Assembly: GCA_006969385.1 (NCBI GenBank)
Contig: CP030884.1
Span: forward strand, 1,116,001-1,180,000
Length of the DNA stretch: 64,000 bases
Source: Planctomycetaceae bacterium
Lineage (GTDB): Bacteria; Planctomycetota; Phycisphaerae; UBA1845; UTPLA1
Reading direction: 5' to 3'
Shown: positions 9,298-34,659 of the stretch, piece by piece
How the letters are laid out: each line of letters opens with the position of its first letter
Numbering within the stretch: position 1 is the stretch's first letter
Notes under the pieces: model-generated
Told to the model about the DNA's origin: nothing
The model's input: only the letters and a program-made list of their open reading frames with translations
Database searches by the model: none
Made by a program: the position numbers and the translations under genes

Positions 9298-9347
9298 ACG
9301 GTAACCAATGGATGAGGGCCGGCAGTTGAATATCAATCGATGTCATA

Positions 9348-10105: not shown

Positions 10106-10112
10106 ACGTGAG

Positions 10113-10146: not shown

Positions 10147-10255
10147 TGAGAGGGACACCCGTGGCTGGGGCACCCGATTGGGCCTGCGCACCTTTGGCAC
10201 CATTTCGTTTGCTCGCATTGTTCGATCTTGGCTTCGGGTTCGTCATGTTGTCATC

Positions 10256-13200
10256 TTAGCGATGCGTGGCGCGCGGCTTGCGTTTTTTCTTGGCTTCTTC
10301 TTCTTCTGACTGACGCTCATCGTCTTCGCGCGTTGACGGCGTGGTGCGGACGCTGACCTTGCGGACCGGCGTCTTCGACACGCGCACGACCGGCGACGGA
10401 CCGTAGAGCGGCCGCTTCGGCGGCGTGTTGTGCTGCGGTGTCGACGGTTGCGGATCGGGTGCCGTGCGAACCTTTTGCACGCGACGATCCGTGGTCTGCG
10501 TTGCGACCGGTTGCATACTATTGGTCGTTGACGTACCGGCCACGCGGCTGGGGATCGAACTCGACGAACTCGAGCGTCGGTTGGCCGTATGAACAGGCAC
10601 GCTGCCCGGCTGAGCCGGCGCGTTGACCGGCACCATGCGCTCCATCGTTGCCGGTCGGCTCACCGGGTTGGTGCGGATCGTCGGGCGATACGTTGGCGGC
10701 GGCGTGGTGCTGCGCGGACGAGGCGCCGGCCGCACGACGGGGCCGTAGCGCGGCGTGCCATCGGGTTGATAGCTCGGAATCGTCCGCGGTCGCACGGGCG
10801 TCGCGCTCGGCGGGTCGAGCGGCGTGCCTTCGTTGGGCTGCACCTCGATGCTGTCGATCTCGCTGCCGGTTTCAGGCGTGACCTGCAACTGACGGAAGAC
10901 CGGGCTCGCTTTCATGTCGGGCGTGATGATACCGGCGAGATCGCGCTGATCGACGCTCATGCGCCGTGCGTCTTCGACCGAACGGACGATGGTCGGCGTT
11001 AAGGCGATCAACAATTCCGACCGCGTATTCATGCGGCTGGTCGTGCGGAACAGATTACCCAACCCGGGAATATCGCCCAAACCCGGCACCTTACTCTCAG
11101 CTTCGGTGCTGCTCGACGTGATCAAGCCACCGATGACGACGGTTTCACCGTCCTTAACTGCAACGGTTGTTTCAGCGCTTTGCTGCGTAATGATGGGGGC
11201 GAAGATGCCGTTGCCGAGCGGGATGTTGGATGCCGAGACCGACGAGATTTCGGGAGCCACGCGCAGATAGACGAAGCCATCGGGATTGATGACGGGCTCG
11301 ACATTGAGAATGACGCCGACTTCTTCGTATTCGACCTGCGCCGTGGTTTGACCGGCATCGGAGATCGTCGTACCGCGCACGAAGGGCACGTTTTCACCAA
11401 TGGTGATGTTCGCTTCCTGATTGGTCTGGCACATGATGCTCGGTCGTTGAATCACTTCGAGGCGGCTATCGGTTTGCAATGCCCGCACGAGGAAGTTGAA
11501 GTCTTCGCCGGTGATCGTGAACGAGAAACCGCCCAAGCCGGCACCGGCCGCACCCAGATCGGTACCACCCACAAAGTCGAACGAGTTGCTTTGAATGATG
11601 CCGTTGGGGCCGGGCACCGCCGACTCGCTGAACTTAAGTTGCTGCAGTGCGAATTCAAGACCCATTTCGAAGCTGTCGTCGAGCGAGACTTCGGCGATCA
11701 TCACTTCGATCATTACCTGAGGCGGCGGCGCATCGAGTTGCTGAATGATGCGCAGCACTTCGGCCTGATAGCGCGGGCTGGTCGAGACCATTAGCTGGTT
11801 CGATTCTTCGTGTGCCACGACCGTGACGTCGCGTTCGTTGATGGCCAATTGAGAAACATCGTTTTGACTGCTGATGAGTTCGCGTTGGGCCGCGAAGTAT
11901 GTGTCGAGCGAACCCTGCAATTCTTCGGCGCGGGTGTTCACCAACGGATAGACGACGTTGACGCGTTCCTGAATATCGCGCGAATCGAGCTGCGCGATAA
12001 TATCACCCGCGACGTCGATATCTTCGGGCCAACCGGCCACGATGATGGCGTTGGTACGTTCGTCGGGAACAAACGTCGTGCGCGGTCGCCCGAACGTGCC
12101 GCGGCGGCTATTGCCAGCGTTAAGGAATCCGGGGCCGCCCGCACCATCGCTAAGGCCGCCTTCGACGTTGATCTGTCGGCCCTGTTGGAAGGCCGCTTGA
12201 TCGTCGGAGCCTTCGTCTTGGGCAAACATCTCGTCCAGCAATTCGACCATGGCGGTGGCATCGGCGTTGTTCAACAAGAATACGCGCACCATGACCTCGC
12301 GTTTTTCGATCGAGTCGAGTTCGCGGACCAACTTCTTGATTAACGACATCGACGTCGGCGGGGCCACCACGATGACGCTGTTGCTGCGTTCGTTGTAGGT
12401 GATTTGCACGTTTTCGCGCACCGTCTGCAGGATGTCGCGATTGCCGTATTCGTCCTTCGCCGTGTATTGAATCAGCAGCGACGACAGGGCGCGGGCGCTT
12501 TCGGAATCGGCATTGGCACCGCCGCCGCCTTCGGCAGCCTGGCCCGTCATGATTTCGTTAAGCAACTCGGCCATCTTGCTGGCGTCTTCGTTGTCGCAGC
12601 GGATGACTTCGACCAGTGCCGTTTCTTTGATCTGCACCGAGTCGAGCTTGTTCACCAGCGATTCGATGTTCTCCAATTCACCCGGCGGCACGGCGACGAC
12701 GATCGAGTTGGTGCGTTCTTCGGCGACGGTCGTGATGGTATTGCCAGCACCACCGCTCGCGCCTTCGCTGACCGAACCCTGATAGATTTCGTCGAGGATT
12801 TCCTTGACGGTTTCGGCCTTGGCCTTGGAGAGCGGAAAAACCTTGAACATCGTGTCGATGACCGACGAGCGATCGAGTTGGGCGATGAGCCCAGAGATCA
12901 GCGCGTGATCCTGCGAGTTGGCGTTGACCAAGAGCGAGTTACCGGGCTCGTTGATTTCGATGGTGACGGGCGTGGGGGTCGCACCGGTGTCGCCACCTTC
13001 AGAATCCGCCTCGCGTCGCGCTTGGAAGATGTTCGTCAACATCTCGCCAACATTCCCGGCGCGGGCTTGGTTGAGCTTGTAATCTTCCACCCAATAGCTC
13101 GGTCGATCTTTCATATTGACCGGTCGATCCAAGTCGCGGATCAATTTCATGGCGAGTCGAATGCCGTCGCGCGTGCCGCCGATGATGACGGAGTTACGCA

Positions 13201-16200
13201 CCGGATCGCTGAGCACCTTCACTTGGAATTGATTGGCGCTGCTGCCCGAACCACCGGAACCGCCGCCGGATTGTTGCCCGACGTCTTCGAGCGCGGTTTC
13301 GAGTTGCGACGCGATCACTTTGCTTTCGGTATGTTCGAGGCGCACGATTTCGAAATCGACCGGCGTCCACGGTTCGGCCACGCTGTTCATGCGGTCGTAC
13401 ACGCGCCGCACAATTTCCATGTTCTCGGGGCTGGCCGAGACGATCAGCATGTTGGCGCGTTCGTCGACGACGACCGACAGCGTTTCGCGGTTTTCGTTGA
13501 CCGCACCTTCGCCGACGCGATCTTTGAACACATCGGGGAATAGATTATCGAGCGCGTCTTTTACGCTGCTGGCGAAGACATTTTCGCAGGGGAAGAACTC
13601 GATGACGGCCTCGACGCCGATGGGGCGATCGAGTTTCGCGAGCTGATCCATCAGGATGTCGTGATTTTCTTTCGACGCCACGAAGATGAGCGAGTTGGTC
13701 GCCGGATCGGCTTCGATGGTGACCTTATCTTCCGGGCGCGGTTCCTGCAGGCCGCGATTCTCGGCACGGGCCTGAAACAGGTTCGTCAACGGGCCGGCCA
13801 ATTCGCTTGCCGAGTTGTGCTTGAGCTGCACGATGTAAATGCCGGCGGCGGGGTTGAGTTCGAGGTTATCGATCTTTTCGACGACGGCGCGAATCGATTC
13901 GTAGTCGCTTTCGCTAGCGACCACGATCAGCGAGTTGCTGCGTTCGTCGGCGACGATGGCGGGCTTATCGAACGTCAGGCCGCTATCACCGCCGCCTTCG
14001 TTTTGCTGACGTTGGTCCCAGAGTTCCTGTAGCTTATCCGCTAAATCGGTGGCGATGCCGTTAACGACTTTGATCGTGCGGATGTTGTCGATCAGCGCTG
14101 TGGCGGGCACGTCGAGTTTTTGGATCAGTTCCTTAAGCTCCGTCAGGCGCTCGCGTTTGGCGGCGAGGATGAGCGACTCGGATCGCGCATCGGCGACGAT
14201 GACGACCGTCTCGCTTTTTTCGGCGTTGGCACCTTCGCCCATCGGAATCGCTTCCTTGCGGCGATCCATCAGGTCGGTCAGCGCTTCGGCCAAACCGGTG
14301 GCCTGGGCATGGTTGAGCTTGACGATTTCAAACGGCATCACGCCACGCCCTTCGACATCGAGCTTGGCGATCAGGCCCGTCAAAATTTCGACGGTATCGG
14401 GACGACCGACCACCACGACCTGATTGGTGCGCGCATCGGCCTTGACGATCGCCTTGTAAACAATCGCACCCGCCTTACCTTCGGGCACACCACCCGGATC
14501 ACCGCCGGCGGCGGGCTTTTCGGTAAGGCCCGCTGCGGCGTCGAGCATTTCGTTGAGTTTGGTTGCCACTTCGCTGGCATCGGCAAAGGTGAGCGGCACC
14601 GTCTGCATCTCGACGGGGTCTTTCGTCGCTTCTTTATCGAGCGCCATCGCGACCTGCCGCATCACCATGCAGTTTTCGAGCGAGCTGGCGATGATGAGTG
14701 AATTACTTTCAGAATCCCCGTAAACCATAGTCGGGCGGTCGAGATTGACCGTCGCCAAAGGCTGGCCGTTTTCATCGAGCAGCCGGAAGCGGCGGATGAA
14801 ATCTTTGAGCGGCGTATCGCCGGTCGCTGCGCGTTCGAGCAGTAAGTTGATCAGTGTGCCAATTTCGACAGCGTCCGTGTGGCGCAAGGGGACCACCATG
14901 ATGTCGGCCGAACCGATGTCGCCGAATTTTTCCGCGGCCGCTTCGTCGCCCATGTCGACATCGAGATTATTGACGATGCTTTCGATGAACTTCATGTCGG
15001 CTTCGAGGGCGGCGACGACGATCTGATTGGTGGGCGGATCGATTTCGATCTGAATCTGATTGGTCTCGAGCCCCTTCTGTCGCAAATAATTTTGTGCAAT
15101 GGTCTTCATCGTTTCGCCGACTTCCGATACACGGCGATTGGCAAATGCGAACGTCTTGGTTTCCTTCTCGATCTGCGGCGGCGTATCGACTTTCTCCACA
15201 AGTGTCTTGGCGAAGTCCAAATTCTCCGGTGATGCCGCAATGAAGATCGCATTGGCGCGCCTGTCGGCGATAAACTCGACCTTATCAACCGGTCGGGCAT
15301 TCTCCGGTTCGATTGCGGCAAAGACTTCATTTAGTCGATCGGCTACATCTTGGGCGAGTGCATTCTTCAGCAAAATAAAATCGACGTCTTTCTCCGGCGT
15401 GCCTGCGTCGATCATCTGAATGATGTTGGTCAGAATTTGCACGTCGTCTTCGAGACCTTCGATGATGAGCGAGCCGTCGGGGGCTTCGATCACGCTGATC
15501 GGCGTACCCGACAGACGGGCGCTGATCGCGTCGAGGCTGTCTTCGTCGACATTGGTCTGGTTCTGTCGCGCCCGCGCTTCGATCATGCGCTTTAGCTCGG
15601 GCGACATCTCGCGCGGTTGCTCGTTACGACCCGCGTTCGGTGCGCGGCGATCGTTGCCTTGCGGCTGCTCGTTATCCCGACCGCGCGGCGGCGCGATGCG
15701 GCGGCGACCGGCCTGGTTATCACCGTCGCGCCCGCGTGCGTTGTTGCCCGCATCCTTCTTATCCGGCTCGGCCTTCTTCCCCCCGTCGGATTTTTTTGCG
15801 TCGTCGTCCTTTTTGTCATCGCGCTGGGGCGGCTGACGCAGGCGAATCGACCGCGGCTTATCTTTATTGGCATCGTTGGGCTTGTCGGTCTGGGCCACTG
15901 CCGATTGCAGCGCCACATTCATCATGAAGACCGGCAACGTCGCCGCGATGGTCGTGGTGCGAATCATCTTTTGCTTCTTTTCCCCGGTTACGTTGGTGGC
16001 GGGCTGCATGTCTTGCCGCGCCGCGCTCTCGACCGCTTCGTAACGACGGTTGTGCGTCCAATTGGCATCACCGCGCCGGCCGCGCCCGCCGCGACGATTG
16101 CCGCGCCCGCGATTACCACGACCACGATTGCTGCTACCGCGCGAGGAGTTGCCTTGGCTTTCCTGATTTTGAATCAACTCTTCAATCAGTTGCTTCATAT

Positions 16201-19200
16201 CCTCTCGATTACCCGGCTTCACGCGAATGACGCCGCGCGTGTAATCACCGCGCGACTTCGACGGATCGGACAGTCCTTCGATCAGGATGTTGATCTCATC
16301 CATCTTGTTCGCGGAGGCGCTGGCCAAGATCATGTTGGTACGCACGTTGGGCCGCAGCGTCACAAGGTCGGGCACATAGCTGCTATTGGCTTGGTTGCGC
16401 TTTTGTTCGGCTTCGTTGACCGTCTCTTCGATCAGACTCGCCAGTTCGTCGGCGCTGTAGCCCGACGGAATCGGTATGAGCTTGATGCCCTTGTCGCCCT
16501 GCTCGCAATAGTCGGCGTCCATCTGTTCGGCGAAAGCCACGACTTCGTTTACGTCGGACGTGCGGCCGCGAATGATGAGCGTGTTGGTCGCCTGGCTGGC
16601 GATGATGCTGAGTTCGGGAGCACTGCCGCCGCTCGACGCGTTGTTACGTCCGCGACCGCGACCGCGCCGACCGCGGTTACGATTGCTACTGCGGCTCGAC
16701 GTCGTATTGCTATCGGCAACCAACTCTTCGGCCTGCTCGGCGATAATGGTGGCATCGGCACACGTTAGCTTCAGGTAGCGCAGCGAGTTGGCGCCCGGTA
16801 CGTCGATCTTCTCGATTTCCTTCAGCGCGTTTTCAACGGCTTCGGGCTTGCCCGCAACGATGATCGAATTGGTCTCATTGATAGCCTTCAGGCGCGTGTC
16901 ACCGGCCAAGACCGTGTCGTCCTCTTCATCGTCATCGCCACGGGCCCACCACGGTAGGTCACTCTGATCGTCGGCGGCGCTGCCACGATTGACGCGCAAG
17001 ACCTCCGTTAGAATGTCAATCATGACGTCGGGGCTAACGTGCTGCAGCGCGACCATCTCGACCATGCGTTCTTCAGCCGTTTCGCTGTCGATAACCTCCA
17101 GCAGCTGATCGATTTCTTCGCGCACCTTGTCGGTACAAAAAACGATCAGCGTGTTGCTTTGGGCGTCGGCATTGATCACGATGCGATCTTCATCGCTGTT
17201 CGTCTGACCGCCGCCGCGACGACCGAAGCGTCCGCGCCCGCCGGTGTTGATGCCCGCCTTCTTATCGAAGAAATCCTGCAGCGTCGTTGCGACGTCTTCA
17301 GCAACGGCGGTCTTCACTTTGATAAAGTGCATCTTGGCCTCGACCGTCGAAGCCATGCTGACGGGCTTGATGATGTCGTTTTCGATTTTCTGATATTCGT
17401 CGTCGGTGGCGTACACGAATAGCGTGTTGGTCGGTTCGTGATATTCCGCGCGCGGGCCTTCGTTGTTGCCGCGTCCGCGACCACCACCACCATAGAGATT
17501 GTTGATCGACTCGGCGACGCTGCGCACCGGGATGCGCGGCTCCATCACCATCGCGGTGATCGCGCGGCTGCCTTCTTCATCAATCGCCTTCACGAGGGCT
17601 TCGATCTGTGCGAATTCCTTATCGTTGGCGAATGCGATGACCTTAGTCGAACCGCGTACAGCACGGATAACAGGAGATTGATCTCGACGCCGTTGCGAAT
17701 TACTCACCTGTTGGAATATCTGCTGAATCGTCTGCGCCACGTCGTTCGGGTCAGCATTCTTTACCGTAATGACGCGCTCGGTGCGCGGTCCGTCGCCGAC
17801 CTGATCGAGTTCGTTGATCAGGGCTTCGATCTCTTTCATCTTCTCGGGATTGGCCGAGACGATCACGCTATTCGTCGTCCAGTCGTCGGTGCTTTCGACG
17901 CTTTCGTTGGGGGAATAGCGCCGGCCCGTCGGTCGAAACAACTGCTGAATCATTCGCGAGACTGCACCGGGATCGACATACTTCAACTTGAAGACGCGGC
18001 GTTCTTTATCCTTCGCACCCGGCACGTCGAACATCTCGATCATCTCGAGAATCTCGGGCATGATGTTTTCGCGTGCGTTGATGACAAGCTGATTGGACAG
18101 ACTTTCCGACGCGATATTGAACGGCGGCTGGCCGCGACGATCGGTCGGATAGCGACCACGAAGCGCTTGGTCGATCGTGTTGCGCATTTCATCCGACTGA
18201 CCGTGTTCGAGCTTAACGAACTTGGTCACCTTCTCTTCGGTCGGCATGTCGGATGCTTCAATCAGGCTTTCCACTTCGGCCATGTTTTCATCATTGGCCG
18301 TTACGATGATGCTGTACGTACCGTCTTCAAATGCGGCCGTTACCTGATCGTTCGGATTGCGCGAGCGCGAGCGGAACTGCGTATTGATGATGTTTGCCAA
18401 GCTCCACGGCGACACATACTTCACGCGGAACACCTTCGTCTTGCGCTCGGCACCGGGTTGATCGAGGCTCTCGATCAAATCCTTAAAACCTTCGGTCGCA
18501 GGCTTGTCACCTTCGGCGGCCTTGCCTGTGTAATCATCTTCGCTGGAATTGACGATCAGGCTGTTGGTGCCCTCTTCGGCCAAAACCGTAATCGGGTACT
18601 TGCGATTGACCTGATCGAAGTTATTGCGAATGTAATCGTTCAACACGCGTGCCAGGTCCGGCGCCTTCGCGTGTTCGAGGGCATAGAGGTGTCGCTTGCG
18701 TTCGCCTTCCTGACCGCCCTTCGATACTTCATCCACCAGCGCCTTGATGCGTTCGTGCTGATCCTTGTTGGCATCGACGATGACCAAATTGGCGCCCGGG
18801 TTAGCCGTAACGACCGGCTTTTCGCGGCCCGTCGTGCGCACGTCTTCGTTGCGGAACATTTCGTTGATGTTGCGCACGACCTGGTTCACATCGACGTTGG
18901 TCGGCAGTTTGTAGGTCTGTTGGCTCTTTTGCAGCGGCGTGCTTTCTTCGACGTCTAACTGGGCCAACGCGTTGTTCAAAATCAATTGCGACTTCGGACC
19001 GCCGACCAGTACCAGCGAGTTGGTGCGCGGGTCGGCTTCGAGGCTAACGTAGTCGATGCTCGCCGTCATATTGCTGTTGCGCATGGCCTCGGCCATCATC
19101 CCGCGGACCTGACCCAACACCTGTTGCGCGGCGGCGTGCTTGAGTTCGAATCGCGTGACCGTGCCCATGGAAGCGTCGACTTTGTCGAGCTCCTGAGCGA

Positions 19201-22200
19201 TGGTCTGCATTTCTTTAAAGGTCTCTTCAGGCGCTTGCACATAAATGATACTGCTGGCGCTGAAGCCTTTGATCTTGATTTGGCTCGCCGTACCAGAACG
19301 AGCGCGTCCTACGCGACCGCCGAAGAGTTCATTAAGCGAATTTGCCACCGTCTCGGCATCGGCAACCGTGAGCTCAATCGTGCGCCATTCCTTCGTCTCA
19401 CCGATGCTGGCGTTGATCGTTTCGATTTCTTTTTCGATCTCTGCCATCTGCGGTGCGGGTGCTTTCACCACCACGGTCGATGTCGCTTCGAGTGGTGTAA
19501 TAACGATGTCGGCTTCGCCGCCATTTCGACCACCACCAGTCACGCCGAATAATTCTTGTAGCGTATTCGCGATCTCGCGCGGCTCGCCATTCACGGGAAT
19601 CTGCTTTACCAGCATGCCGTTTTCGTTGTCCTGATCGAACTCCTCAACGATAAGCTTGGCGCGTTCCACACCATTTTGAGGGCCGACCAACACGATGCTG
19701 TTGGTTCGCGCGTCGGCGTGAAGCGAAACGTTGTCTTTATTTGCAGGTGACGAGGCTTGGGCGCGCCCGCGATTGCCGCCGCGTCCACGACCCCGGGGTG
19801 CCGGCGCCGCCGGCGCGTTGGCTTCGTTGATGGTCTCGTCGATCAGGTCTTGAACGATTTCCGCGATCTCGGTAGCGCGCGCGTTCTTCAACAAAACGCG
19901 TTCCATCACCACATCTTTAACAGACTTCAACTCGAGTTCGGTGATGAGATCCTCGATCATGTCGAGCGTGGGCTTGGGCCCCTGCGCGATAATCGTGTTC
20001 GTTTGACGTTCGGCGGTGAGCGTTACCTTGTCGCCGGCGACGACGGTGCCACCATCACTGCCGCCCTGCTGAAGTTGCACCTGATTGCGACCGCCCTGGG
20101 CCTGATTGTTGCCGCGGTTATTGCCACGACGTGCGGTGCGCTGCTGCGGCGCCTGATCGATGCGGAAGATTTCCTTCAGATTGGCAACGACCTCGGTGGC
20201 GTCGAGCTTCTCGAGCTGAATCATGCGGAAATCGAGCGCGAGGATGTTCTTCGAGTCGATGCGCTTGAGCACTTCCACGATCAGCGGGATATCCGGCAAC
20301 GGCGCGACGATGTAGAGCGAGCTGGTGCGCTCGTCAGGCACCACCTTGATGCGTGCCGACGCCAGCGCCTGCTGTTGGGCTTGTTGCTCGGCTTGAGCTT
20401 GCGCCTGCGCTTGTGCGAGTGCTTTTGCTCGGGCATCGTCGCCGCCCTTGTCGCCGCCGCCCTTATTGTTCGGTTGCGGTTGGCGACGCTGGGGTGCGCG
20501 ACGCTGGGTGGGCTGATTGAAGACGTCGTTTAACAGTTGCGCTGCACTGCGGACATCGGCGTACTTAATGGGAATAACGCGAATAACCGTCGTCGCCTTG
20601 TCGGGAATCAAGTCCGACGCCAATTCCTCCAGTTTGATCAGCTCGTTTTTGGGACCCGTGATGATGATCTTGCCGGTTTCCGGGTCGGGGAAGATGCGAA
20701 TGCGATCGACCGGCGCGTTAATGACGGCCTGCAGGCGCGGATCGGCCAGCGACGACGGTGGGTTTTCATCTTCAGGCGTTTGGCCCAAAACCGTTACCGC
20801 TGCCACCTGCTGTAGCCACAGGGGCAGCGCCGTCGGCGTTAGCGATGAAACCGGCGTTTCGTCTTTCTTGTCGTCGGTCTTGGCGGATGATTTTTTCTTT
20901 TCGCCGGCGCGGGTTTTCTTGATTTCGACCTTGCCATCGTCCTCATCTTCCTCTTCGCCTGCGTGAATATCGATAATCTCCACGCGCGAAATGCCGCCCA
21001 AGTCGCCGACCTCGATCGGCACCGACGATTGATGTCGAAGCTGAAGCAGCCGTGCCATCGCTTCGGGCGAAATCTTGCCTTCCAAGTCGAGCTGAATCCA
21101 ACCGTCCCCGGCACTGCCGCTGCCATCCTTCGGCACGTCCCACATCTTGATGGCGGCTTTGATATCATCCACCTCGTCCGGTCGGAAGTTGCGCACGATC
21201 ATCACCTTGGGGCTCGGGCCTTCGAGGAATTCGACCGGGCGGCGGCCTTCGATGTTGTAGAACAGATCGAGATCGTAAGAGAGATCCCACGCTTCGCGGT
21301 TATCCAAATCGACGGTAAAGAAATCACCCTTCTTGCCGGGGCCATCGCCCGGGCCCGGAGGCGGCTCCGGTGGATCGTAGATTTTTGCCAAGCAATTTTC
21401 GATCAGCGGCCAATCCTTCAGCAGCGCGCGAATGATCAACGTGTTTTCAAACGTATCGGCGACGATTTCCACATCATCAATGGCGGACTTGTTCGACAAT
21501 TTCGCTTTTTGCGGCTGACGACCGCGCGTGCGGCGACCGCGGGCCGCGGCTGCCTTTTGGTCGTTGCTATTCGCCGTGACCACCTGCACTTCGGTCGATT
21601 CGACGCCGCTGAGCAACTGCTCCAACTTCTTCTTATCTTCTTCCGCGTCGTAGGCTTGCACCTTGCGGATGATCGGCTCGGGGTCGGCCACGTCGAGTTC
21701 GAACGTAAGCTTGATCGCTTCGTCCACTTCCTTACGCGGCCCGGCGATGATCAGGCGCTCGCCGATGGCGGTTATCGCCAACTCCACATCGGCGGCGTTG
21801 ATGCCTTCGACCTTGCCGCCGCCTTCACCGCCGGGGGCCGTCGTGGGCGTGGCCAAAATGCTCTTGAGCACCGTGGCCAAATCTTCGGCCTTACGGTTCT
21901 GCACCGTGATCGTTTCGGTGTACGGCGCATTTTCTTTGGCTTCGGCTTCGATATCCGCCACGAGGCGCTGAATCTGTTCGAGTTTCTCCGGCGGCGCCGT
22001 CACGAGCAGCGAATTGGTAAACGGTTCGGCCGTTACCGTCACCGTGGTTTCGCCTTCGGTCTTTACCGTGGCGGCGGGCGTTTTCACATTTTTGGTTTTG
22101 TTGTTCGCAGCGCGGCGCGGCGCGCGACGACGACTGACGTTGGGCGCTTGGTACACCGTGCCGGGAATGGCTTGCTTGATCGTCGGCGCGATGAGTTCGG

Positions 22201-25042
22201 CCTTGGAGTATTCCAGGCGAATGACCGTCATCTCGGCACCGACGTTGATGTCGAGCTTCTCGATCAGCGGCGTGACCTTCTCGATAAAGGTGGGCTTGGC
22301 CCAAATGCGCAGCCGCTTGTTAAACGCGTCGGCCGTGATCATCAGGTCCTGGCCGCCGTCGCCCGGGAACATTTGGTTAAGCGTGCTGGCTAAATCGGCG
22401 GGGTCGGCCCGCTCCAGCGGAATTTCGACGAAGATCGGCTCGATCTCGCAGGCGTTCTGTTCGAGTTCGTCGATCAGCGGCTTCATCTCGGCCCAGTCCT
22501 GATCGCTGCACAACACCAGCAGTCGGTTCTCCGCGTCTTTCGCGATCATCACCGGTCCGTCGCCGCCACTGCTCGTTGAGCGACCGCGCGATCGGGCGCG
22601 CGCCTTCGCGCGGGCCTGAGCGCGACGTTGCGCCGCCGTCTTGGCCTTGCTGTCTTTTGATTCAACCACTTGCGGTCCGTTGTCGTCATCGCGTAGCAGT
22701 TGAGCGAGCGTTTCGGCAACTTCCGAAGGAACGGCGCACGTAAACTCGACGAAGCGCTTCGTCGGCGCATCGGGATCGGGGCGATCGAACTCGGCCACGC
22801 GCTCGGCGATGCGATCCATATCGAAGCGCGTCGCGCTGACGTATAGCTCGCGGCTGGAACGAATGACGAAGACCGGATCGGGACCGGCGGACCCACCGGC
22901 AGCCGGCGATGCCGCGCCCTTCTTGCCGCGCGCAGCGCGCACGACGGGCGTACCCAATGACGGTGGTAATGCGTTTTGCACTTCTTCGACAATGTCGGCC
23001 GCGTCGCGATGTTGCAGGATGAACGTGCGATTGATCCAGTCGGGCTGCACGTCGTACTGCGCGATCAAGCGCCGCGCTTCTTTGTTGCCTTCCGCACCGC
23101 CGACCATGATGATCGAGTTGCCGCTGGCAGCACGAAGCGTGACGTCGAAGACTTCGAGAATTTTCGGATCGACGTAACCCGTGCGTTTGTCGCCGGCGAG
23201 TTCCTGCTTCATCTCAGCAAGCAAAGGCGCGATCAAATTGACGACATCTTCGGCGGGCGCATTGTTGACTTGCACCGTCTCAATGCGCGGTCGCGACGAA
23301 ACCGGTTCATCGATACTGCGAATCGTTTCCAGAATCGCGGCAAGGTAATCATCCGGCGCGGAAATATAGAGCACGTTGTTGATGGCATCGGCGATGATGC
23401 TGATGGCGTCTGTATCTTCGAGTTCGGGCGCTATGTTGTTGGCTGCCTGATTACGCCCGCGCCGCCCACCGCGTCGCCGCGATTTAGCAGCGGTCGGCGC
23501 AGCAGTGGTCGCGGCATCAACCGGGTACAGTTGCCGTAGCAGCGTCTGCATATCAGCCACTTTGACGTGATTGAGTTTTACCTTCGTCGGTTTGTCTTCA
23601 ATTCCGGGCCGTTGATTGGGCGTCACCGCAACCAATTTCTCGATACGATCGCGAAATTCGTAGTGTTCCTTCACCAAGCCCGTTAACTGAATCGTGAATT
23701 GATCGAGAGGCTCGACTCCGTAGGTATCCGAAAACTCCGGGCGAAACTCTTCGATGATGCTCCCCGCCGTCCACGTGGGCGGCGCTTTGAACTGCGTCAC
23801 GCAAATGTCGTATAGCGGCAAATCCGCAGCTTCGAATTCCGCATAGCTGCCGTAGATCTTGTCGACAGGAATCTTGCGCATCGCATCGGGAATGCGCTCG
23901 ACCGTGATGCGGTCGCCGAGATCGCGAATGATCATGTTGTTAAGCGGCTGATCGAGCAGCAGCTCGTTGAGTTTGTTGAACAATTCGCGATAGGTGAATG
24001 TCTTCGTTGTGAAGTACGTGAGATTGCCTTCCAGCATCGCATCCGGGTTATCGATGTAGGGTACACCGCGAATGCGGGCCAGATCGCGCACGATATCCAC
24101 CCACGGCATATCTTCGGGATTGAAGGTGATGCTCGCCGCATTGCTGCCGTCGCGCGTTTCGATATCGATGATCATTACCTCGGCCAGCTCACCCACCGGC
24201 GAGCCGACGGTGGCGGCTGAGGCACTGTCATCGTCAGCGGTAATGCCGCCGGTCGGGCGCATGCCGCGTGGCTTGTTGGTATTCACCACCGGGCGGCGCG
24301 TGCTGGTATTCGTGCGCGACGGGTTTTCGTCTTTGCCGCCGGTACGGGATTTGTCGACATTCTTCGATTTGCTGTCGCGAATGCGCTCGAGGCGGCGCTG
24401 CCGCTGTTCCTCCAAACGCTTGCGGCGCCGTTCGGCAGGTGAGAGCGATGCATCTTCGGCCTCGTCGCCCTCGGCCTCTTCGGCCGACGGATCGTCCTTT
24501 TCAACGGGGCTGGGCTTCGCCTGCCGGCGCGTGGGCTTGCCACCCTTCGCCTGATCCAATTCCTTCGGATCGGCCTTACCGGGTGCCGGTTGCTTGCTCA
24601 TGTTGGGTTGCGGCTTGGTGGGAACAGCGGGCGTCTTATCACCCGGCTTCTTCGATTTGATGGCGGCTTGTTGGAGGCGCTTCAGTTCGTCGTCGATGCG
24701 CTTGCGTTCGGCATCGGTAACGCCGCCGTCGGCATCCTGCCGCGCTTTGATAATCGCTTCCTTCAACTCGTCGAGGTCGGCCTCTTTGGCCTCTTCCTTG
24801 GGAGCAGGCTCTTTCTTTTCCTCTTCCTTGCTATCTTCTTTTTTCTCGTCGGTCTCTTCTTCGGCCTCGGCTTCTTCGTCTTCGGCGTCGTCCGATTCCT
24901 CATCTTCTTTTGGATCGGGTGCGCGCAGACCGGCATCGGCGGCAAACGCAGTTGCGACCGGCAAACCCCAATTGGTGAAGGATGCCAATAGCAAACACAA
25001 CAATAGAACCAACGAAATGCGTATGCGCAAGATGGACAACAT
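10256..25042 (-). CDS. gspD: Giant multi-N-domain secretin (GspD-like), 4,928 residues
   Basis: A single open frame of 4,928 codons. Residues 1-35 are a Sec signal peptide (RISLVLLLCLLLASFTNWG...ATAFA). A Lys/Glu-rich linker runs to about 290, and an N0-like segment (ITFNPEDMPWVDIVRDLARIRGVPYI) lies near 300-400. After that comes a long series of secretin N-type (NolW-like) domains, each ending in a strand such as ADARTNSIVLVGP or PDERTNAIIVAG. I count about 42, roughly 27 before and 15 after an internal signal-like segment at 3026-3052. The channel domain starts near 4436 (VMIEVMIAEVSLDDS) and has the signature VPGLGDIPGLGNLFR at about 4651-4665. A Pro/Arg-rich tail ends the protein. Ordinary GspD has N0-N3 and 600-750 residues. 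Many N domains contain Arg/Gly/Asn-rich loops. The gene follows gspF-K, pilM-N and gspM-like genes on the same strand, so it should be the outer-membrane channel of that machine. Confidence 0.93.
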   Translation of the reverse strand: MLSILRIRISLVLLLCLLLASFTNWGLPVATAFAADAGLRAPDPKEDEESDDAEDEEAEAEEETDEKKEDSKEEEKKEPAPKEEAKEADLDELKEAIIKARQDADGGVTDAERKRIDDELKRLQQAAIKSKKPGDKTPAVPTKPQPNMSKQPAPGKADPKELDQAKGGKPTRRQAKPSPVEKDDPSAEEAEGDEAEDASLSPAERRRKRLEEQRQRRLERIRDSKSKNVDKSRTGGKDENPSRTNTSTRRPVVNTNKPRGMRPTGGITADDDSASAATVGSPVGELAEVMIIDIETRDGSNAASITFNPEDMPWVDIVRDLARIRGVPYIDNPDAMLEGNLTYFTTKTFTYRELFNKLNELLLDQPLNNMIIRDLGDRITVERIPDAMRKIPVDKIYGSYAEFEAADLPLYDICVTQFKAPPTWTAGSIIEEFRPEFSDTYGVEPLDQFTIQLTGLVKEHYEFRDRIEKLVAVTPNQRPGIEDKPTKVKLNHVKVADMQTLLRQLYPVDAATTAAPTAAKSRRRGGRRGRNQAANNIAPELEDTDAISIIADAINNVLYISAPDDYLAAILETIRSIDEPVSSRPRIETVQVNNAPAEDVVNLIAPLLAEMKQELAGDKRTGYVDPKILEVFDVTLRAASGNSIIMVGGAEGNKEARRLIAQYDVQPDWINRTFILQHRDAADIVEEVQNALPPSLGTPVVRAARGKKGAASPAAGGSAGPDPVFVIRSSRELYVSATRFDMDRIAERVAEFDRPDPDAPTKRFVEFTCAVPSEVAETLAQLLRDDDNGPQVVESKDSKAKTAAQRRAQARAKARARSRGRSTSSGGDGPVMIAKDAENRLLVLCSDQDWAEMKPLIDELEQNACEIEPIFVEIPLERADPADLASTLNQMFPGDGGQDLMITADAFNKRLRIWAKPTFIEKVTPLIEKLDINVGAEMTVIRLEYSKAELIAPTIKQAIPGTVYQAPNVSRRRAPRRAANNKTKNVKTPAATVKTEGETTVTVTAEPFTNSLLVTAPPEKLEQIQRLVADIEAEAKENAPYTETITVQNRKAEDLATVLKSILATPTTAPGGEGGGKVEGINAADVELAITAIGERLIIAGPRKEVDEAIKLTFELDVADPEPIIRKVQAYDAEEDKKKLEQLLSGVESTEVQVVTANSNDQKAAAARGRRTRGRQPQKAKLSNKSAIDDVEIVADTFENTLIIRALLKDWPLIENCLAKIYDPPEPPPGPGDGPGKKGDFFTVDLDNREAWDLSYDLDLFYNIEGRRPVEFLEGPSPKVMIVRNFRPDEVDDIKAAIKMWDVPKDGSGSAGDGWIQLDLEGKISPEAMARLLQLRHQSSVPIEVGDLGGISRVEIIDIHAGEEEDEDDGKVEIKKTRAGEKKKSSAKTDDKKDETPVSSLTPTALPLWLQQVAAVTVLGQTPEDENPPSSLADPRLQAVINAPVDRIRIFPDPETGKIIITGPKNELIKLEELASDLIPDKATTVIRVIPIKYADVRSAAQLLNDVFNQPTQRRAPQRRQPQPNNKGGGDKGGDDARAKALAQAQAQAQAEQQAQQQALASARIKVVPDERTSSLYIVAPLPDIPLIVEVLKRIDSKNILALDFRMIQLEKLDATEVVANLKEIFRIDQAPQQRTARRGNNRGNNQAQGGRNQVQLQQGGSDGGTVVAGDKVTLTAERQTNTIIAQGPKPTLDMIEDLITELELKSVKDVVMERVLLKNARATEIAEIVQDLIDETINEANAPAAPAPRGRGRGGNRGRAQASSPANKDNVSLHADARTNSIVLVGPQNGVERAKLIVEEFDQDNENGMLVKQIPVNGEPREIANTLQELFGVTGGGRNGGEADIVITPLEATSTVVVKAPAPQMAEIEKEIETINASIGETKEWRTIELTVADAETVANSLNELFGGRVGRARSGTASQIKIKGFSASSIIYVQAPEETFKEMQTIAQELDKVDASMGTVTRFELKHAAAQQVLGQVRGMMAEAMRNSNMTASIDYVSLEADPRTNSLVLVGGPKSQLILNNALAQLDVEESTPLQKSQQTYKLPTNVDVNQVVRNINEMFRNEDVRTTGREKPVVTANPGANLVIVDANKDQHERIKALVDEVSKGGQEGERKRHLYALEHAKAPDLARVLNDYIRNNFDQVNRKYPITVLAEEGTNSLIVNSSEDDYTGKAAEGDKPATEGFKDLIESLDQPGAERKTKVFRVKYVSPWSLANIINTQFRSRSRNPNDQVTAAFEDGTYSIIVTANDENMAEVESLIEASDMPTEEKVTKFVKLEHGQSDEMRNTIDQALRGRYPTDRRGQPPFNIASESLSNQLVINARENIMPEILEMIEMFDVPGAKDKERRVFKLKYVDPGAVSRMIQQLFRPTGRRYSPNESVESTDDWTTNSVIVSANPEKMKEIEALINELDQVGDGPRTERVITVKNADPNDVAQTIQQIFQQVSNSQRRRDQSPVIRAVRGSTKVIAFANDKEFAQIEALVKAIDEEGSRAITAMVMEPRIPVRSVAESINNLYGGGGRGRGNNEGPRAEYHEPTNTLFVYATDDEYQKIENDIIKPVSMASTVEAKMHFIKVKTAVAEDVATTLQDFFDKKAGINTGGRGRFGRRGGGQTNSDEDRIVINADAQSNTLIVFCTDKVREEIDQLLEVIDSETAEERMVEMVALQHVSPDVMIDILTEVLRVNRGSAADDQSDLPWWARGDDDEEDDTVLAGDTRLKAINETNSIIVAGKPEAVENALKEIEKIDVPGANSLRYLKLTCADATIIAEQAEELVADSNTTSSRSSNRNRGRRGRGRGRNNASSGGSAPELSIIASQATNTLIIRGRTSDVNEVVAFAEQMDADYCEQGDKGIKLIPIPSGYSADELASLIEETVNEAEQKRNQANSSYVPDLVTLRPNVRTNMILASASANKMDEINILIEGLSDPSKSRGDYTRGVIRVKPGNREDMKQLIEELIQNQESQGNSSRGSSNRGRGNRGRGNRRGGRGRRGDANWTHNRRYEAVESAARQDMQPATNVTGEKKQKMIRTTTIAATLPVFMMNVALQSAVAQTDKPNDANKDKPRSIRLRQPPQRDDKKDDDAKKSDGGKKAEPDKKDAGNNARGRDGDNQAGRRRIAPPRGRDNEQPQGNDRRAPNAGRNEQPREMSPELKRMIEARARQNQTNVDEDSLDAISARLSGTPISVIEAPDGSLIIEGLEDDVQILTNIIQMIDAGTPEKDVDFILLKNALAQDVADRLNEVFAAIEPENARPVDKVEFIADRRANAIFIAASPENLDFAKTLVEKVDTPPQIEKETKTFAFANRRVSEVGETMKTIAQNYLRQKGLETNQIQIEIDPPTNQIVVAALEADMKFIESIVNNLDVDMGDEAAAEKFGDIGSADIMVVPLRHTDAVEIGTLINLLLERAATGDTPLKDFIRRFRLLDENGQPLATVNLDRPTMVYGDSESNSLIIASSLENCMVMRQVAMALDKEATKDPVEMQTVPLTFADASEVATKLNEMLDAAAGLTEKPAAGGDPGGVPEGKAGAIVYKAIVKADARTNQVVVVGRPDTVEILTGLIAKLDVEGRGVMPFEIVKLNHAQATGLAEALTDLMDRRKEAIPMGEGANAEKSETVVIVADARSESLILAAKRERLTELKELIQKLDVPATALIDNIRTIKVVNGIATDLADKLQELWDQRQQNEGGGDSGLTFDKPAIVADERSNSLIVVASESDYESIRAVVEKIDNLELNPAAGIYIVQLKHNSASELAGPLTNLFQARAENRGLQEPRPEDKVTIEADPATNSLIFVASKENHDILMDQLAKLDRPIGVEAVIEFFPCENVFASSVKDALDNLFPDVFKDRVGEGAVNENRETLSVVVDERANMLIVSASPENMEIVRRVYDRMNSVAEPWTPVDFEIVRLEHTESKVIASQLETALEDVGQQSGGGSGGSGSSANQFQVKVLSDPVRNSVIIGGTRDGIRLAMKLIRDLDRPVNMKDRPSYWVEDYKLNQARAGNVGEMLTNIFQARREADSEGGDTGATPTPVTIEINEPGNSLLVNANSQDHALISGLIAQLDRSSVIDTMFKVFPLSKAKAETVKEILDEIYQGSVSEGASGGAGNTITTVAEERTNSIVVAVPPGELENIESLVNKLDSVQIKETALVEVIRCDNEDASKMAELLNEIMTGQAAEGGGGANADSESARALSSLLIQYTAKDEYGNRDILQTVRENVQITYNERSNSVIVVAPPTSMSLIKKLVRELDSIEKREVMVRVFLLNNADATAMVELLDEMFAQDEGSDDQAAFQQGRQINVEGGLSDGAGGPGFLNAGNSRRGTFGRPRTTFVPDERTNAIIVAGWPEDIDVAGDIIAQLDSRDIQERVNVVYPLVNTRAEELQGSLDTYFAAQRELISSQNDVSQLAINERDVTVVAHEESNQLMVSTSPRYQAEVLRIIQQLDAPPPQVMIEVMIAEVSLDDSFEMGLEFALQQLKFSESAVPGPNGIIQSNSFDFVGGTDLGAAGAGLGGFSFTITGEDFNFLVRALQTDSRLEVIQRPSIMCQTNQEANITIGENVPFVRGTTISDAGQTTAQVEYEEVGVILNVEPVINPDGFVYLRVAPEISSVSASNIPLGNGIFAPIITQQSAETTVAVKDGETVVIGGLITSSSTEAESKVPGLGDIPGLGNLFRTTSRMNTRSELLIALTPTIVRSVEDARRMSVDQRDLAGIITPDMKASPVFRQLQVTPETGSEIDSIEVQPNEGTPLDPPSATPVRPRTIPSYQPDGTPRYGPVVRPAPRPRSTTPPPTYRPTIRTNPVSRPATMERMVPVNAPAQPGSVPVHTANRRSSSSSSIPSRVAGTSTTNSMQPVATQTTDRRVQKVRTAPDPQPSTPQHNTPPKRPLYGPSPVVRVSKTPVRKVSVRTTPSTREDDERQSEEEEAKKKRKPRATHR
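15885..15990 (-). other. Internal signal-peptide-like segment and possible internal start in the giant secretin gene
   Basis: At residue 3026 (ATG 15967, minus strand) the frame encodes MIRTTTIAATLPVFMMNVAL followed by QSAVAQTDK. This has a positive n-region, a hydrophobic core and an AVA|Q-type cleavage site. Just upstream in the transcript is GGGGAAAAGAAG, a plausible ribosome-binding site. It is followed by a Lys/Asp-rich linker (KPNDANKDKP..., DKKDDDAKKSDGGKK), the same order as at the true N-terminus. Translation from here would give a 1,903-residue secretin with about 15 N domains. No stop codon separates the halves. Confidence 0.6.
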
Positions 25043-25154: not shown

Positions 25155-26756
25155 TCATCCGCCGATTGCGTATGACCCCTTGGACCATTCCATAATCGCG
25201 GACGCTAACTGCTCGTCGTTTTCCGCTTGCAGCCGCTCGCGTTCCGCAAAACTCTTGCCGCGCGGATAGATGTAATAATTGCCGCTAGCCTGCATCTGCA
25301 CGATGCCGCCGAGGGCGCACACGCTGCGCAGCGCGCCGTCGCCATCGACCGTGCCCCAGATGCCGGCGCGAATGACCTCGCGGCCGTCGGGGCCTTCGAC
25401 GATCATTTCCTGCACGTAGTCGCCTTCGGGCGTTTCGTATGCCAAAAGCGCTTTGACGATGTGATCGGGGCTGCCGACTTCGTCTTCGATCACAACCTTA
25501 ACAGGCTGCTCGACTTCGACCGGCCGGTTGTCCTCGACAACAATGTCCTTCGCGATCGTGTACGTCTGCGGTGTCGGACGCGGCATAAACGTCTGCATCC
25601 GCACGTCCTTGCCCGATGCATACTTACCGGCGATTTTCACCTGCTTGGCATCTTTGAACGCACCCAAATCGGCCTGCGAACTTGCGGCCACCACCATCTC
25701 GGGCAATACGCGCGTCTGATTGTCGTTATCCACAATCGTGACCGTGAAGCGCGCTTCGTCTTCGTCCTGATTGTTCACGACCAGCGTAATCGGCGGCGGC
25801 GGCTTTTCTTCCGGCGTGTGCCGCGCGACCTTATACGACCACGGCTTGCCGCTCGCGAAGCTGTGTTTCATCGTAAACACGTTGCCGTCGGCATAGGCGC
25901 CCTTCAGCTCGACCAAGTCGCCCTCACCGAAAAACGTCTGCTGCTTGTTCGGTTGAATCGCCGACTGCCGCACGACGGTTTCCTTACCTTCCCACATGAA
26001 AGCCAATTCAACGCCGACGGTTTTCAAATCCAGATTCTCAACAATCACCTGCTGCCGCGGTGCCGGTTCAAACGCTTTAAAGATGTTTTGATTGTTCAGC
26101 GCGACGGTATATGCCGACGCGGGTAAGACATCCTTACGCCACGGATCGGACGGCGCCTTGTCTTCCAGCTTCTGCATCGTGGCAAAGCGATCGAAATACT
26201 CCGTCTCTTTCGGCGGCAGCTTTGGCAAAACGACCGTGGCCACGCGGCAATCCAACTTGACCACGTTGCGACCGGCGTCGGGGTCGGGCGTTAACACGAG
26301 GTCGGTAATCTGCGAGATATAGGGCGCGTCGTAGAGACCGCGCAGTAGCTCGATCACGCGCGCGTATTCATCTTTGACGGTAATGTCGTACTTAATCGTC
26401 GTGGTGCGGAGCTTGTTCTCTTCGGAGATGGTCGTCGGCTTGCTGATCTTGGTAATCAACGCCGAATCGAAACCGTGCAGCGTGGCCGTTTCTTTCAGGC
26501 GACGACTGAATTTATCGAACGCCACGGCATCGTCATCGCTAAACGTACGGTTGGCGAAGCCGCGCCATGTCTGCGCGAGATCGCCTTCGGATTCGACGAG
26601 TTCCGTTAGCTCAGCTTTGTCATCACCATATCGCTTAATTTCACCCTCATACGACGCGATCGGCGACAGATAGATCACGTCGATCAGGAAGTAGACCGCG
26701 TAGCAACCCACCGCCACGCCGAAGATCAGGGCCAATCGTTTTTCGCGAGGATTCAT
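25155..26756 (-). CDS. PilO/GspM-like inner-membrane platform protein
   Basis: A 533-residue protein whose start (MNPREKRLALIFGVAVG) overlaps the stop of the upstream pilM-pilN gene by four bases (ATGA). A single membrane helix lies at about 8-30. It is followed by a coiled-coil stretch (SPIASYEGEIKRYGDDKAELTELVE) and a periplasmic alpha/beta region (TLHGFDSALITKISKP..., TTTIKYDITVKDEYARVIELLRGLYDAPYISQI) typical of PilO or GspM. The region from about residue 190 to the end is extra compared with PilO (about 200 residues) and includes several beta-rich blocks of unknown role (LKTVGVELAFMWEGKETVV...). By family, PilO and GspM pair with PilN/GspL to link the cytoplasmic motor to the secretin. 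It precedes the giant secretin by 112 bases. Confidence 0.8.
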   Translation of the reverse strand: MNPREKRLALIFGVAVGCYAVYFLIDVIYLSPIASYEGEIKRYGDDKAELTELVESEGDLAQTWRGFANRTFSDDDAVAFDKFSRRLKETATLHGFDSALITKISKPTTISEENKLRTTTIKYDITVKDEYARVIELLRGLYDAPYISQITDLVLTPDPDAGRNVVKLDCRVATVVLPKLPPKETEYFDRFATMQKLEDKAPSDPWRKDVLPASAYTVALNNQNIFKAFEPAPRQQVIVENLDLKTVGVELAFMWEGKETVVRQSAIQPNKQQTFFGEGDLVELKGAYADGNVFTMKHSFASGKPWSYKVARHTPEEKPPPPITLVVNNQDEDEARFTVTIVDNDNQTRVLPEMVVAASSQADLGAFKDAKQVKIAGKYASGKDVRMQTFMPRPTPQTYTIAKDIVVEDNRPVEVEQPVKVVIEDEVGSPDHIVKALLAYETPEGDYVQEMIVEGPDGREVIRAGIWGTVDGDGALRSVCALGGIVQMQASGNYYIYPRGKSFAERERLQAENDEQLASAIMEWSKGSYAIGG

Positions 26757-29014: not shown

Positions 29015-29488
29015 TCAATCCGATCGACCCGCCAAATCCCGCCGCTCATCGCCGTGCGGGGTATAGGCCGGGCCGAGTTCGTTCAAGTTACGGTAGTAGA
29101 TCACTTGCGGAATCGGGCCGCGCATCTGAATCACGACCATCAACCGCTCGACTACGCCCAAGTTGTCCGCATACCCCAACGATTCGATGCGATACATCGA
29201 ACCCTTGGTGGTAATGGAATCCAAAATCTGCCGAAAGCGATTCTCATCGATCGCATTGCTCGTTAGCAGCCACGCCGCGGACGAACGCTCGGCCAAGGGC
29301 ACTTGCTGGCGCGCTTCGACAATCGAATTCACTTCGGCATCAGTCAGATTCGGAATCGTCGCCAGCACCGCCGGCGCGGCCGTACTCACATTGATACGCC
29401 CTTGGGTGAAGGGCAGTTGCTGCACCGTCAAACGATCCAGAATCTGAGGCAGGTCTTCGTACGTTCCCGGCGGCTCCTCTTCCGTCAA
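29015..29488 (-). CDS. gspK: GspK C-terminal part, separated by a frameshift
   Basis: The 157-residue frame starts at TTG 29488, which overlaps the TGA of the upstream gspK frame (TTGA). The sequence TEEEPPGTYEDLPQILDRLTV, then RINVSTAAPAVLATIPNLTDAEVNSIVEAR, is the second helix-hairpin-helix-like half of GspK/PulK, the pseudopilin that caps the tip. Reading this frame backwards past the TTG gives APTYVN, so the true protein continues upstream. One extra G in the run of five G at 29501-29505 (+ strand) would join it to the preceding frame as SNVPPTYVNLTEEEP. As it stands it could be made separately only by translational coupling. Confidence 0.72.
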   Translation of the reverse strand: MTEEEPPGTYEDLPQILDRLTVQQLPFTQGRINVSTAAPAVLATIPNLTDAEVNSIVEARQQVPLAERSSAAWLLTSNAIDENRFRQILDSITTKGSMYRIESLGYADNLGVVERLMVVIQMRGPIPQVIYYRNLNELGPAYTPHGDERRDLAGRSD

Positions 29489-32451: not shown

Positions 32452-32925
32452 CGCTTCCGCTTCGCGAGGGGTTATGCTTCGCAATTGAAGATTGCCAATG
32501 GCACAAAGCGGCCAACGCTCCGAAGAGCGGACCGTACTGAAATCTGATACGCGTATCGACGGTTTCTGTCGCAGCAGGCAATGCCGCACATGGGCAGTTG
32601 GGCGACGGCAATCAGCGGTAAGTCACGCTGCCCGAACGGCTTAAGCGCGAACGCCGCTGAAAAAATCTTTTGATGCCGAAAATGGGCGCGCAGGTCACGC
32701 TTTTCGCAGCACAGTTACCAGTATTGAGGGGCCACTGCGCATTAACTGCGCGTGGAAAGGATGTTACGAGCGGTATTGAAAGCTCATGCGGAGAATCGCG
32801 CGCCAAGCCGGCGTCCCCTGGGAACTGAAGTCGTTTGAACTCTGCCACGGGAAGCATCGGCGTCTCGCCGGTGGGAAAAGCAAATATGCACCGCCAGGAC
32901 GGCGATGCACCCCCAGACGATTCCA
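32452..32925. other. Intergenic stretch inside the secretion operon
   Basis: These 474 bases between gspH and gspI hold no credible gene. Short frames here (for example one ending at 32612 on the minus strand) are translations of the dispersed repeat at 32845-32914. No terminator or promoter is obvious. Confidence 0.6.
32845..32914. repeat. 70-bp dispersed repeat, copy 1 (inverted relative to 46245-46314)
   Basis: It begins CCACGGGAAGCATCGGCG and ends CGGCGATGCACCCCC. It contains two short hairpins (GGCG-TCT-CGCC, and an imperfect GCACCGCC...GGCGATGC). It matches the reverse complement of 46245-46314 at about 62 of 70 positions by eye. Confidence 0.85.
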
Positions 32926-34534: not shown

Positions 34535-34659
34535 CACAGTGCAATCTCCTTCGTTTTCGGCACTCCCATAGCCGCACCCCAACGGGCCGACCGGGCACAC
34601 AACCTTCTTATTCAAGCACGACTGGTGAAAGTCGCAAATCGATTCTAGTTTTCGGGTCC

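What the first reader, a model, noticed from the sequence alone, without database searches (positions are those of the whole stretch)
10256..25042. A 4,928-residue secretin with about 42 N-type domains
The uninterrupted frame carries about 42 copies of the secretin N-domain strand motif (ADxRTNSLIVxGP-like) before one normal secretin channel domain ending in VPGLGDIPGLGNLFR. Ordinary GspD/PilQ proteins have three or four such domains. If each forms a ring of the usual 2-3 nm, a straight stack would be far longer than a normal periplasm, so the protein may span an unusually wide compartment, fold back, or form a filament. This appears to be a new architecture for an outer-membrane secretion channel.
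Basis: partly seen in the sequence, partly recalled or inferred. Interest (0 to 1): 0.95.

Follow-up and report, generated by a model that had tools for sequence, protein, structure and literature searches.

The report
Giant secretin built from fused genes
This planctomycete gene encodes a 4,928-residue protein of the secretion-channel (GspD) family with about 43 ring-type domains where ordinary members have three or four; sister families carry the same parts as two or three separate genes, and the product would likely form an exceptionally long tube across the cell envelope.

Summary
Confirmed: the frame is real, lies on the minus strand of a one-contig genome, and carries one N0 domain, 41-43 N-type domains and one secretin channel domain. 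It passes NCBI's GspD cut-off and sits in a type II secretion gene cluster. It is no artefact: 24 of 60 relatives have secretin frames over 4,000 residues, and dN/dS against a same-genus genome is 0.08. A public protein search gave 180 relatives; the 120 listed are 2,905-6,165 residues long. Non-planctomycete control secretins gave 2-4 units with the same profile.

Sister families encode the same set as two (rarely three) neighbouring genes: an N-domain-only protein carrying the single N0, then a secretin with 12-17 units and no N0. And the fused protein keeps a complete signal-peptide-like sequence at that border (61 of 62 close homologues), always followed by 15 units (62 of 62).

Best reading: two or three exported proteins joined head to tail, predicted to stack into one ring tube of roughly 100 nm and possibly cut at the internal signal peptide. 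Tube geometry and cutting are untested. New variant of a known kind.

The parts
10256..25042 (-). Giant GspD-type secretin, 4,928 aa (P0001)
24938..25042 (-). N-terminal signal-peptide-like stretch, about residues 1-35
   Evidence: sequence; hydrophobic maximum at residue 9
23888..24124 (-). N0 domain, residues 307-385
   Evidence: the same place in relatives is Pfam PF21305 GspD-like N0
16163..23683 (-). First N array, residues 454-2960, 26-28 N-type units; counterpart of the separate N-only gene(s) of sister families
20780..20857 (-). Second, less regular signal-like stretch, residues 1396-1421, in the wide gap where family f2 has a further gene border
   Evidence: (35 of 62 homologues)
15494..16162 (-). 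Junction, residues 2961-3183: Arg/Gly-rich tail, short linker, internal signal-peptide-like stretch, linker
15890..15967 (-). Internal signal-peptide-like stretch ending AVA|Q, residues 3026-3051
   Evidence: no amino-acid change against G001 over 31 codons
11696..15493 (-). Second N array, residues 3184-4449, 15 N-type units; counterpart of the N units of the separate secretin gene
10982..11482 (-). Secretin channel domain, residues 4521-4687
   Evidence: PF00263 166.2 bits
9440..10246 (-). 268-aa lipoprotein-like protein beside the secretin; pilotin candidate (inferred)
   Evidence: no Pfam family; relatives in 37 of the 40 order-level loci
25155..26756 (-). 533-aa protein at the GspM/PilO-like position (position only; no family match)
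26753..29008 (-). PilM-like protein at the GspL position
   Evidence: PF11104 69.1 bits; 38 of 60 loci
29015..30780 (-). GspK in two ORFs (29015-29488 and 29485-30780)
30780..34041 (-). Minor pseudopilin-like genes (30780-31694 GspJ-like, 31654-32589, 32926-34041), weak matches
34076..34615 (-). GspG, major pseudopilin
   Evidence: PF08334 81.7 bits; TIGR01710 107.9 bits over its cut-off 88.85
34660..35850 (-). GspF-like inner-membrane protein
   Evidence: PF00482 207.2 bits; TIGR02120 370.5 bits, below its cut-off 424

Best explanation
The frame encodes a GspD-type secretin with one N0 domain, about 43 N-type domains and one channel domain that matches, part for part, two or three separate neighbouring genes of sister families, and it is predicted to form a stack of rings roughly 100 nm long from the inner-membrane pseudopilus platform to the outer-membrane channel. 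Shown: domain content and order, neighbouring type II secretion genes, purifying selection, fused and split forms, N0 at the start and channel domain at the end of complete systems, and a conserved signal-peptide-like sequence at the join. Inferred: one ring per N domain as in GspD and PilQ; 15 subunits as in solved GspD, which would give about 8 MDa; a tube long enough for a wide periplasm; and descent of the window's family from a gene fusion that kept the secretin's own signal peptide. In split families the N-only protein would be a tube extension that docks end-on to the first ring of the secretin and carries the N0 that meets the inner-membrane complex.
For: 41-43 units, one N0, one channel domain. 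GspD equivalog TIGR02517 1031.6 bits against a cut-off of 351.35, raised by the repeats (19 stretches), best stretch 4252-4696 on profile 162-600. GspF-, G-, J- and K-like genes upstream. Nearest solved sequences are GspD, E 2.7e-30 and 1.4e-23. AlphaFold2 of residues 2072-2604 shows seven successive units with the secondary structure of secretin N domains; fold matches are GspD/PulD/ExeD. In 13 of 13 split systems whose first ORF is held with its N0 region, the only N0 lies in that ORF and the secretin ORF has none. Of 42 single-ORF loci with 30 or more units, 42 have the channel domain and 37 one N0; the other five are open at the 5' side (a few are the same contig fetched twice). Unit order matches: 33 of 33 pairs collinear with G003; against split G031, 8 of 10 pairs of units 1-26 fall in the first gene and 8 of 8 pairs of units 30-41 in the second. 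Exactly 15 units follow the join in 62 of 62 homologues. Precedent: Thermus PilQ, six N rings, about 35 nm, spans most of a periplasm of about 70 nm (PMC5745081, PMC4463427; passages).
Against: No experiment. The models leave domain-to-domain placement open (pTM 0.36 and 0.44). Long Arg/Gly-rich loops between units could be flexible arms. Unit order against distant fused families is hardly better than shuffled (L138: 7 in order, shuffled max 8; L136: 9, max 8). In two planctomycete loci outside the class (L147, L150) both the secretin and a non-adjacent N-only ORF carry an N0, which does not fit one conduit per N0 there. Cryo-tomograms of Planctopirus limnophila show crater structures that hold the inner membrane close to the wall (PMC5394234), not 100-nm tubes, though in another class. 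No GspE gene lies in the window; 15 T2SSE-family loci lie elsewhere in the genome. The periplasm width of Phycisphaerae was not found.
Confidence: 0.6

Rival explanations
1. A polyprotein: the fused chain is likely cut at the internal signal-peptide-like sequence, and perhaps at a second one near residue 1421, into an N-only tube protein and a secretin, as split families make them from separate genes. This is compatible with the tube and replaces only the claim that one chain runs its whole length.
For: 61 of 62 homologues (46-97% identity, the window's own included) have a hydrophobic stretch followed by a small-x-small-Q site in the junction; 114 such sites in 268,330 residues elsewhere, many of them in the second wide gap. 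Ala at -3 in 52 of 61 and at -1 in 59 of 61, Pro at -14 in 53 of 61, basic residues before it; the search pattern itself demanded Q, a small residue at -1 and one of seven at -3. dN 0 over 31 codons there. Separate N-only proteins end in similar Arg/Ser/Gly-rich tails and separate secretins begin with similar signals.
Against: A single hydrophobic stretch inside an already exported chain would have the wrong orientation for signal peptidase unless export restarts; family f4 has only weak versions; the second site is in 35 of 62 only. SignalP was not available.
Confidence: 0.4
2. The N array does not form stacked rings but flexible or folded-back arms, or a bundle, hanging from a normal channel.
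For: Long low-complexity Arg/Gly loops between units; domain placement unresolved in the models.
Against: The domains belong to the ring-forming N-domain family; N0 is kept at the far end; the 15-unit count after the join is fixed, which a loose arm would not need, although the part before the join varies from 21 to 34 units.
Confidence: 0.25
3. It is part of a planctomycete crater-like surface complex that links the two membranes and carries pilus-like fibres, rather than a protein exporter.
For: Crater structures connect to the cell membrane and bear 12-nm fibres in P. limnophila (PMC5394234, passages and one section); pilin families are expanded in Planctomycetales (PMC8567305, section 18).
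Against: No paper seen ties a secretin to these structures, and they are described in another class with shorter secretins; the gene cluster here is of type II secretion kind. Not exclusive with a long tube.
Confidence: 0.12
4. Assembly error, frameshift read-through or decaying gene.
For: None beyond the unusual size.
Against: One-contig genome; 24 of 60 relatives with frames over 4,000 aa; dN 0.048 and dS 0.575 over 4,904 codons, dN/dS under 0.18 in each section; relatives from several sources.
Confidence: 0.01

Closest known systems
GspD/PulD/XcpQ, secretin of the type II secretion system
   Same: N0, N-type domains, channel domain in the same order; NCBIfam GspD cut-off passed; type II secretion genes beside it; closest solved relatives
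   Different: About 43 N-type units instead of three; 4,928 instead of about 650 residues; counterpart of two or three genes; internal signal-peptide-like sequence
Thermus thermophilus PilQ
   Same: More N rings than usual, tied by its authors to a wide periplasm (PMC5745081; PMC4463427)
   Different: Six N rings in 757 residues; pilus and DNA-uptake machine; single ordinary gene
Enlarged secretins of other Planctomycetota (for example Limnoglobus roseus L110, Pirellula- and Gemmata-like loci)
   Same: Same phylum and same larger branch of the channel-domain tree (fork support 93/96); more N units than usual
   Different: 6-12 units in 1,072-2,318 residues; some have their own N0; N-only ORFs, where seen, are not adjacent

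Membership tests
Type II secretion secretin GspD | C-terminal secretin channel domain | tested here: met
   PF00263 166.2 bits, cut-off 27.5
Type II secretion secretin GspD | NCBIfam GspD equivalog model TIGR02517 | tested here: met
   1031.6 bits, cut-off 351.35; score raised by repeats; PilQ (312.3 against 284.35) and SctC (249.7 against 238.45) models also pass, far lower
Type II secretion secretin GspD | GspD-type N0 domain at the N terminus | tested here: met
   Profile hit at 307-385; in relatives P0081 and P0084 the same place matches PF21305 GspD-like N0, 24.5 and 27.1 bits at a cut-off of 27; PF21305 does not hit the window protein itself
Type II secretion secretin GspD | Three further N domains (N1-N3), about 600-700 residues | tested here: not met
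   41-43 units in 4,928 residues; controls 2-4
Type II secretion secretin GspD | Lies with other type II secretion genes | tested here: met
   GspF-, G-, J-, K-like and PilM-like genes upstream; GspE is not in the window
Type II secretion secretin GspD | Multimeric outer-membrane channel that exports folded proteins | not testable with these tools
   Needs biochemistry and imaging
Type IV pilus secretin PilQ | Closer to PilQ than to GspD, AMIN domains, pilus genes | tested here: not met
   GspD model scores far higher than PilQ; no AMIN family among the Pfam hits; neighbours fit GspF, G, K, with a PilM-like protein as the one pilus-type part
Signal-peptidase-cut polyprotein | Conserved internal signal peptide at a protein border | tested here: met
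   By hydrophobicity and site pattern, not by SignalP: 61 of 62
Signal-peptidase-cut polyprotein | Two mature products from one frame | not testable with these tools
   Needs N-terminal proteomics or blots

The most novel reading that the evidence does not exclude
Phycisphaerae make a modular secretion conduit of over 100 nm and about 8 MDa, a stack of some 44 rings, from a polyprotein that signal peptidase cuts at one or two internal signal peptides into tube segments, while sister families keep the segments as separate genes. Tube-extension proteins made only of N0 and N domains would be a component type not known from type II secretion.
Probability: 0.3. Interest if true: 0.92.

Novelty: new variant of a known kind. 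Interest (0 to 1): 0.82.

Why it matters
The number of secretin N rings has been linked to periplasm width in Thermus PilQ. A class of bacteria with secretins, or secretin gene sets, of about 30 to 65 N units would test that rule at an extreme, could serve as a molecular ruler for the enlarged planctomycete periplasm, and offers a natural experiment of fused against split: the same tube from one chain or from two or three docked segments. The conserved internal signal peptide would, if used, make this a rare polyprotein in a bacterial envelope machine.

Tried and rejected
Assembly artefact, frameshift or pseudogene: rejected. Internal translation start for the C-part: not supported, a Met lies at -30 to -17 before the site in only 22 of 61. 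Family f7 (G022) as a further architecture: set aside; its 1,887-residue secretin frame runs across an N gap and begins with what looks like RNA polymerase beta (recognised from memory), an assembly chimera. G048 looked like a secretin without a partner: an N0-bearing N-only frame (1,589 aa, 15 units) lies elsewhere in its gapped scaffold. A single origin of the fusion: in the tree of 126 channel domains the window's family (15 fused rows, 100/98) falls among split families under a fork of modest support (90/83) and apart from the main other fused clade (25 rows, 95/92), so an independent fusion is likely but not proven. For that tree 14 loci (duplicate contigs and short pieces) and rows with short or gapped segments were left out, and the label 'split', set by length and unit count, also took in six Gemmata- or Planctomycetaceae-like rows without an adjacent N-only ORF. 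Neighbours of 533 and 268 aa: no Pfam family up to E 10; the 268-aa protein has only chance-level solved matches. Foldseek TM-scores of the whole multi-domain models are low because domain placement is free; only per-domain agreement is used. Papers: ten full-text searches; among the papers listed (several lists were cut) no title or shown abstract describes giant secretins. in fact searched 'secretinn' because the tool drops the underscore; 'secretin' also matches 'secreting'. A paper on planctomycete envelope remodelling recalled from memory is not held. Of four papers I saw passages (PMC5394234 and PMC8567305 also one section each); all others only as search listings.

Full report
Observation. 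The frame at 10256-25042 is on the minus strand, starts at an ATG and is open for 4,928 codons. Pfam finds 32 Secretin_N stretches that pass E 0.01 on their own and one Secretin domain. A repeat profile finds 43 units when the protein is searched alone and 41 in larger search sets. With the same profile, 25 of 25 non-planctomycete loci give 2-4 units, 17 of them 3. An N0 lies at 307-385; in two relatives the same place matches Pfam's GspD-like N0 model, which does not reach the window protein itself.

Reality. The genome is one contig of 5.475 Mb; its other six secretin loci have frames of 384-1,021 aa. A same-genus genome (G002) lies on a contig of the same length as a record named Phycisphaerae bacterium that the named scan returned, so the class is taken as Phycisphaerae. 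Of 60 relatives, 24 have a best secretin frame above 4,000 aa: 14 of 16 of the window's family f1, the other two cut by contig ends, and 10 of 13 of family f4. dN/dS against G001 is 0.083 over 4,904 codons, below 0.18 in each section, 0.093 in the junction, and without amino-acid change over the 31 codons of the internal signal-like stretch. A protein search with residues 3180-4700 gave 180 proteins at E 1e-20 among the 1,226 candidates scored; the 120 listed are 2,905-6,165 aa with 29-65 units; where named they are called hypothetical protein, secretin N-terminal domain-containing protein or type II secretion system protein D and the like. In a scan of 392 genomes of the phylum, the frames over 3,000 aa in the (cut) list of matches are all in the window's class; many genomes of the class show only shorter frames.

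Split forms. Thirteen fetched genomes of families f2, f5, f6 and f8 have a secretin frame of 1,441-1,842 aa with 13-17 units, and beside it, upstream on the same strand, an ORF of N-type units without channel domain. Eight of these N-only ORFs are complete: 2,607-3,739 aa with 25-35 units. G021 has over 4,400 aa with 52 units, and G017 has two N-only ORFs in a row (9 and 14 units, the secretin 15); G024 looks the same but its first ORF is cut. Three further named contigs have secretins with 12 units (L069, L075, L077). In the 13 systems whose first ORF is held with its N0 region, the N0 is in that ORF and none is in the secretin ORF. G048 has its N-only frame elsewhere in a gapped scaffold, and G022 is a chimera. 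Outside the class, L083 and L105 have an N0-bearing N-only ORF near a secretin without N0, whereas L147 and L150 have N0 on both.

The join. In the window protein 26 of 41 units precede and 15 follow a gap of 229 residues. Within family f1 unit order is kept (33 of 33 pairs for G003 and for G013, 25 of 27 for G005). Against split G031, 14 of 18 reciprocal best pairs are in order (shuffled mean 6.1, max 9); 8 of 10 pairs from units 1-26 fall in its first gene and 8 of 8 from units 30-41 in its second. Against the distant fused L136 and L138 order is not clearly above shuffling. The number after the join is 15 in 62 of 62 close homologues; the join was defined as the widest gap leaving 13-17 units. 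In f4 it is 12 in eight of nine and 11 in one; in f3 14. In the gap lies a basic, then hydrophobic stretch with a small-x-small-Q site in 61 of 62. Separate N-only proteins end in Arg-rich tails, many also rich in Ser and Gly, like the sequence before the join, and separate secretins begin with similar signals. A second, less regular signal-like stretch lies in the gap around residues 1,260-1,447 in 35 of 62, about where f2 has its further gene border. The frame reads as two, perhaps three, whole preproteins joined head to tail. In the tree of channel domains the window's family falls among split families under a fork of modest support.

Neighbourhood. On the minus strand: GspF-like, GspG, minor pseudopilin-like genes, GspK in two ORFs, a PilM-like protein, a 533-aa protein, the giant secretin, a lipoprotein-like 268-aa protein. 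The last is found in 37 of the 40 order-level loci and in none of the 20 more distant ones searched. I take it as a pilotin candidate, which is inference; the lipobox was judged by eye.

Mechanism. In GspD and PilQ the N domains form stacked rings (established for these families). Thermus PilQ with six N rings is about 35 nm long in a periplasm of about 70 nm, and its authors write that the six rings let it span most of the wide periplasm (PMC5745081 and PMC4463427, passages). Planctomycetes have an enlarged periplasm (PMC5394234, PMC8567305; passages and one section each); a width for Phycisphaerae was not found. N0 at one end, the channel at the other and gene borders between whole units fit a continuous conduit made of one chain or of docked segments. 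Rivals are loose arms, a crater complex, and a cut polyprotein; the last is compatible with the tube.

Novelty. Databases hold such proteins, some named as GspD. Ten searches of the open library listed no paper on them by title or shown abstract; several lists were cut and most subscription journals are not held. I file it as a new variant of GspD.

Noticed in passing
window 29015-30780 (-): GspK appears as two overlapping ORFs (29485-30780 matching GspK model positions 3-193, and 29015-29488 matching 206-293); relatives of both are found in many related loci.
   Followed up: partly
window 9440-10246 (-): Lipoprotein-like 268-aa protein without Pfam family, kept beside the secretin in 37 of 40 order-level loci, fused and split alike.
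   Followed up: partly
window 7969-9336 (-): VKOR domain joined to a DsbA-like thioredoxin domain, on the same strand just past the secretion genes.
   Followed up: no
G000, whole genome: 15 T2SSE-family ATPase loci and seven secretin loci, none of the ATPases in the window: the ATPase for this system is not known.
   Followed up: no
window 36139-38178 (-): Cytochrome c552-family (nitrite reductase-like) protein beside the secretion genes.
   Followed up: no
L083 14066-21787, L105 8510-15427, L147 2-3298, L149 14880-19901, L150 15573-19295: N-domain-only ORFs near, but not adjacent to, enlarged secretins in planctomycetes outside the class: N-only proteins may be a wider component type.
   Followed up: partly
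window 44720-46048 (-): Transposase (DUF772/DDE type).
   Followed up: no
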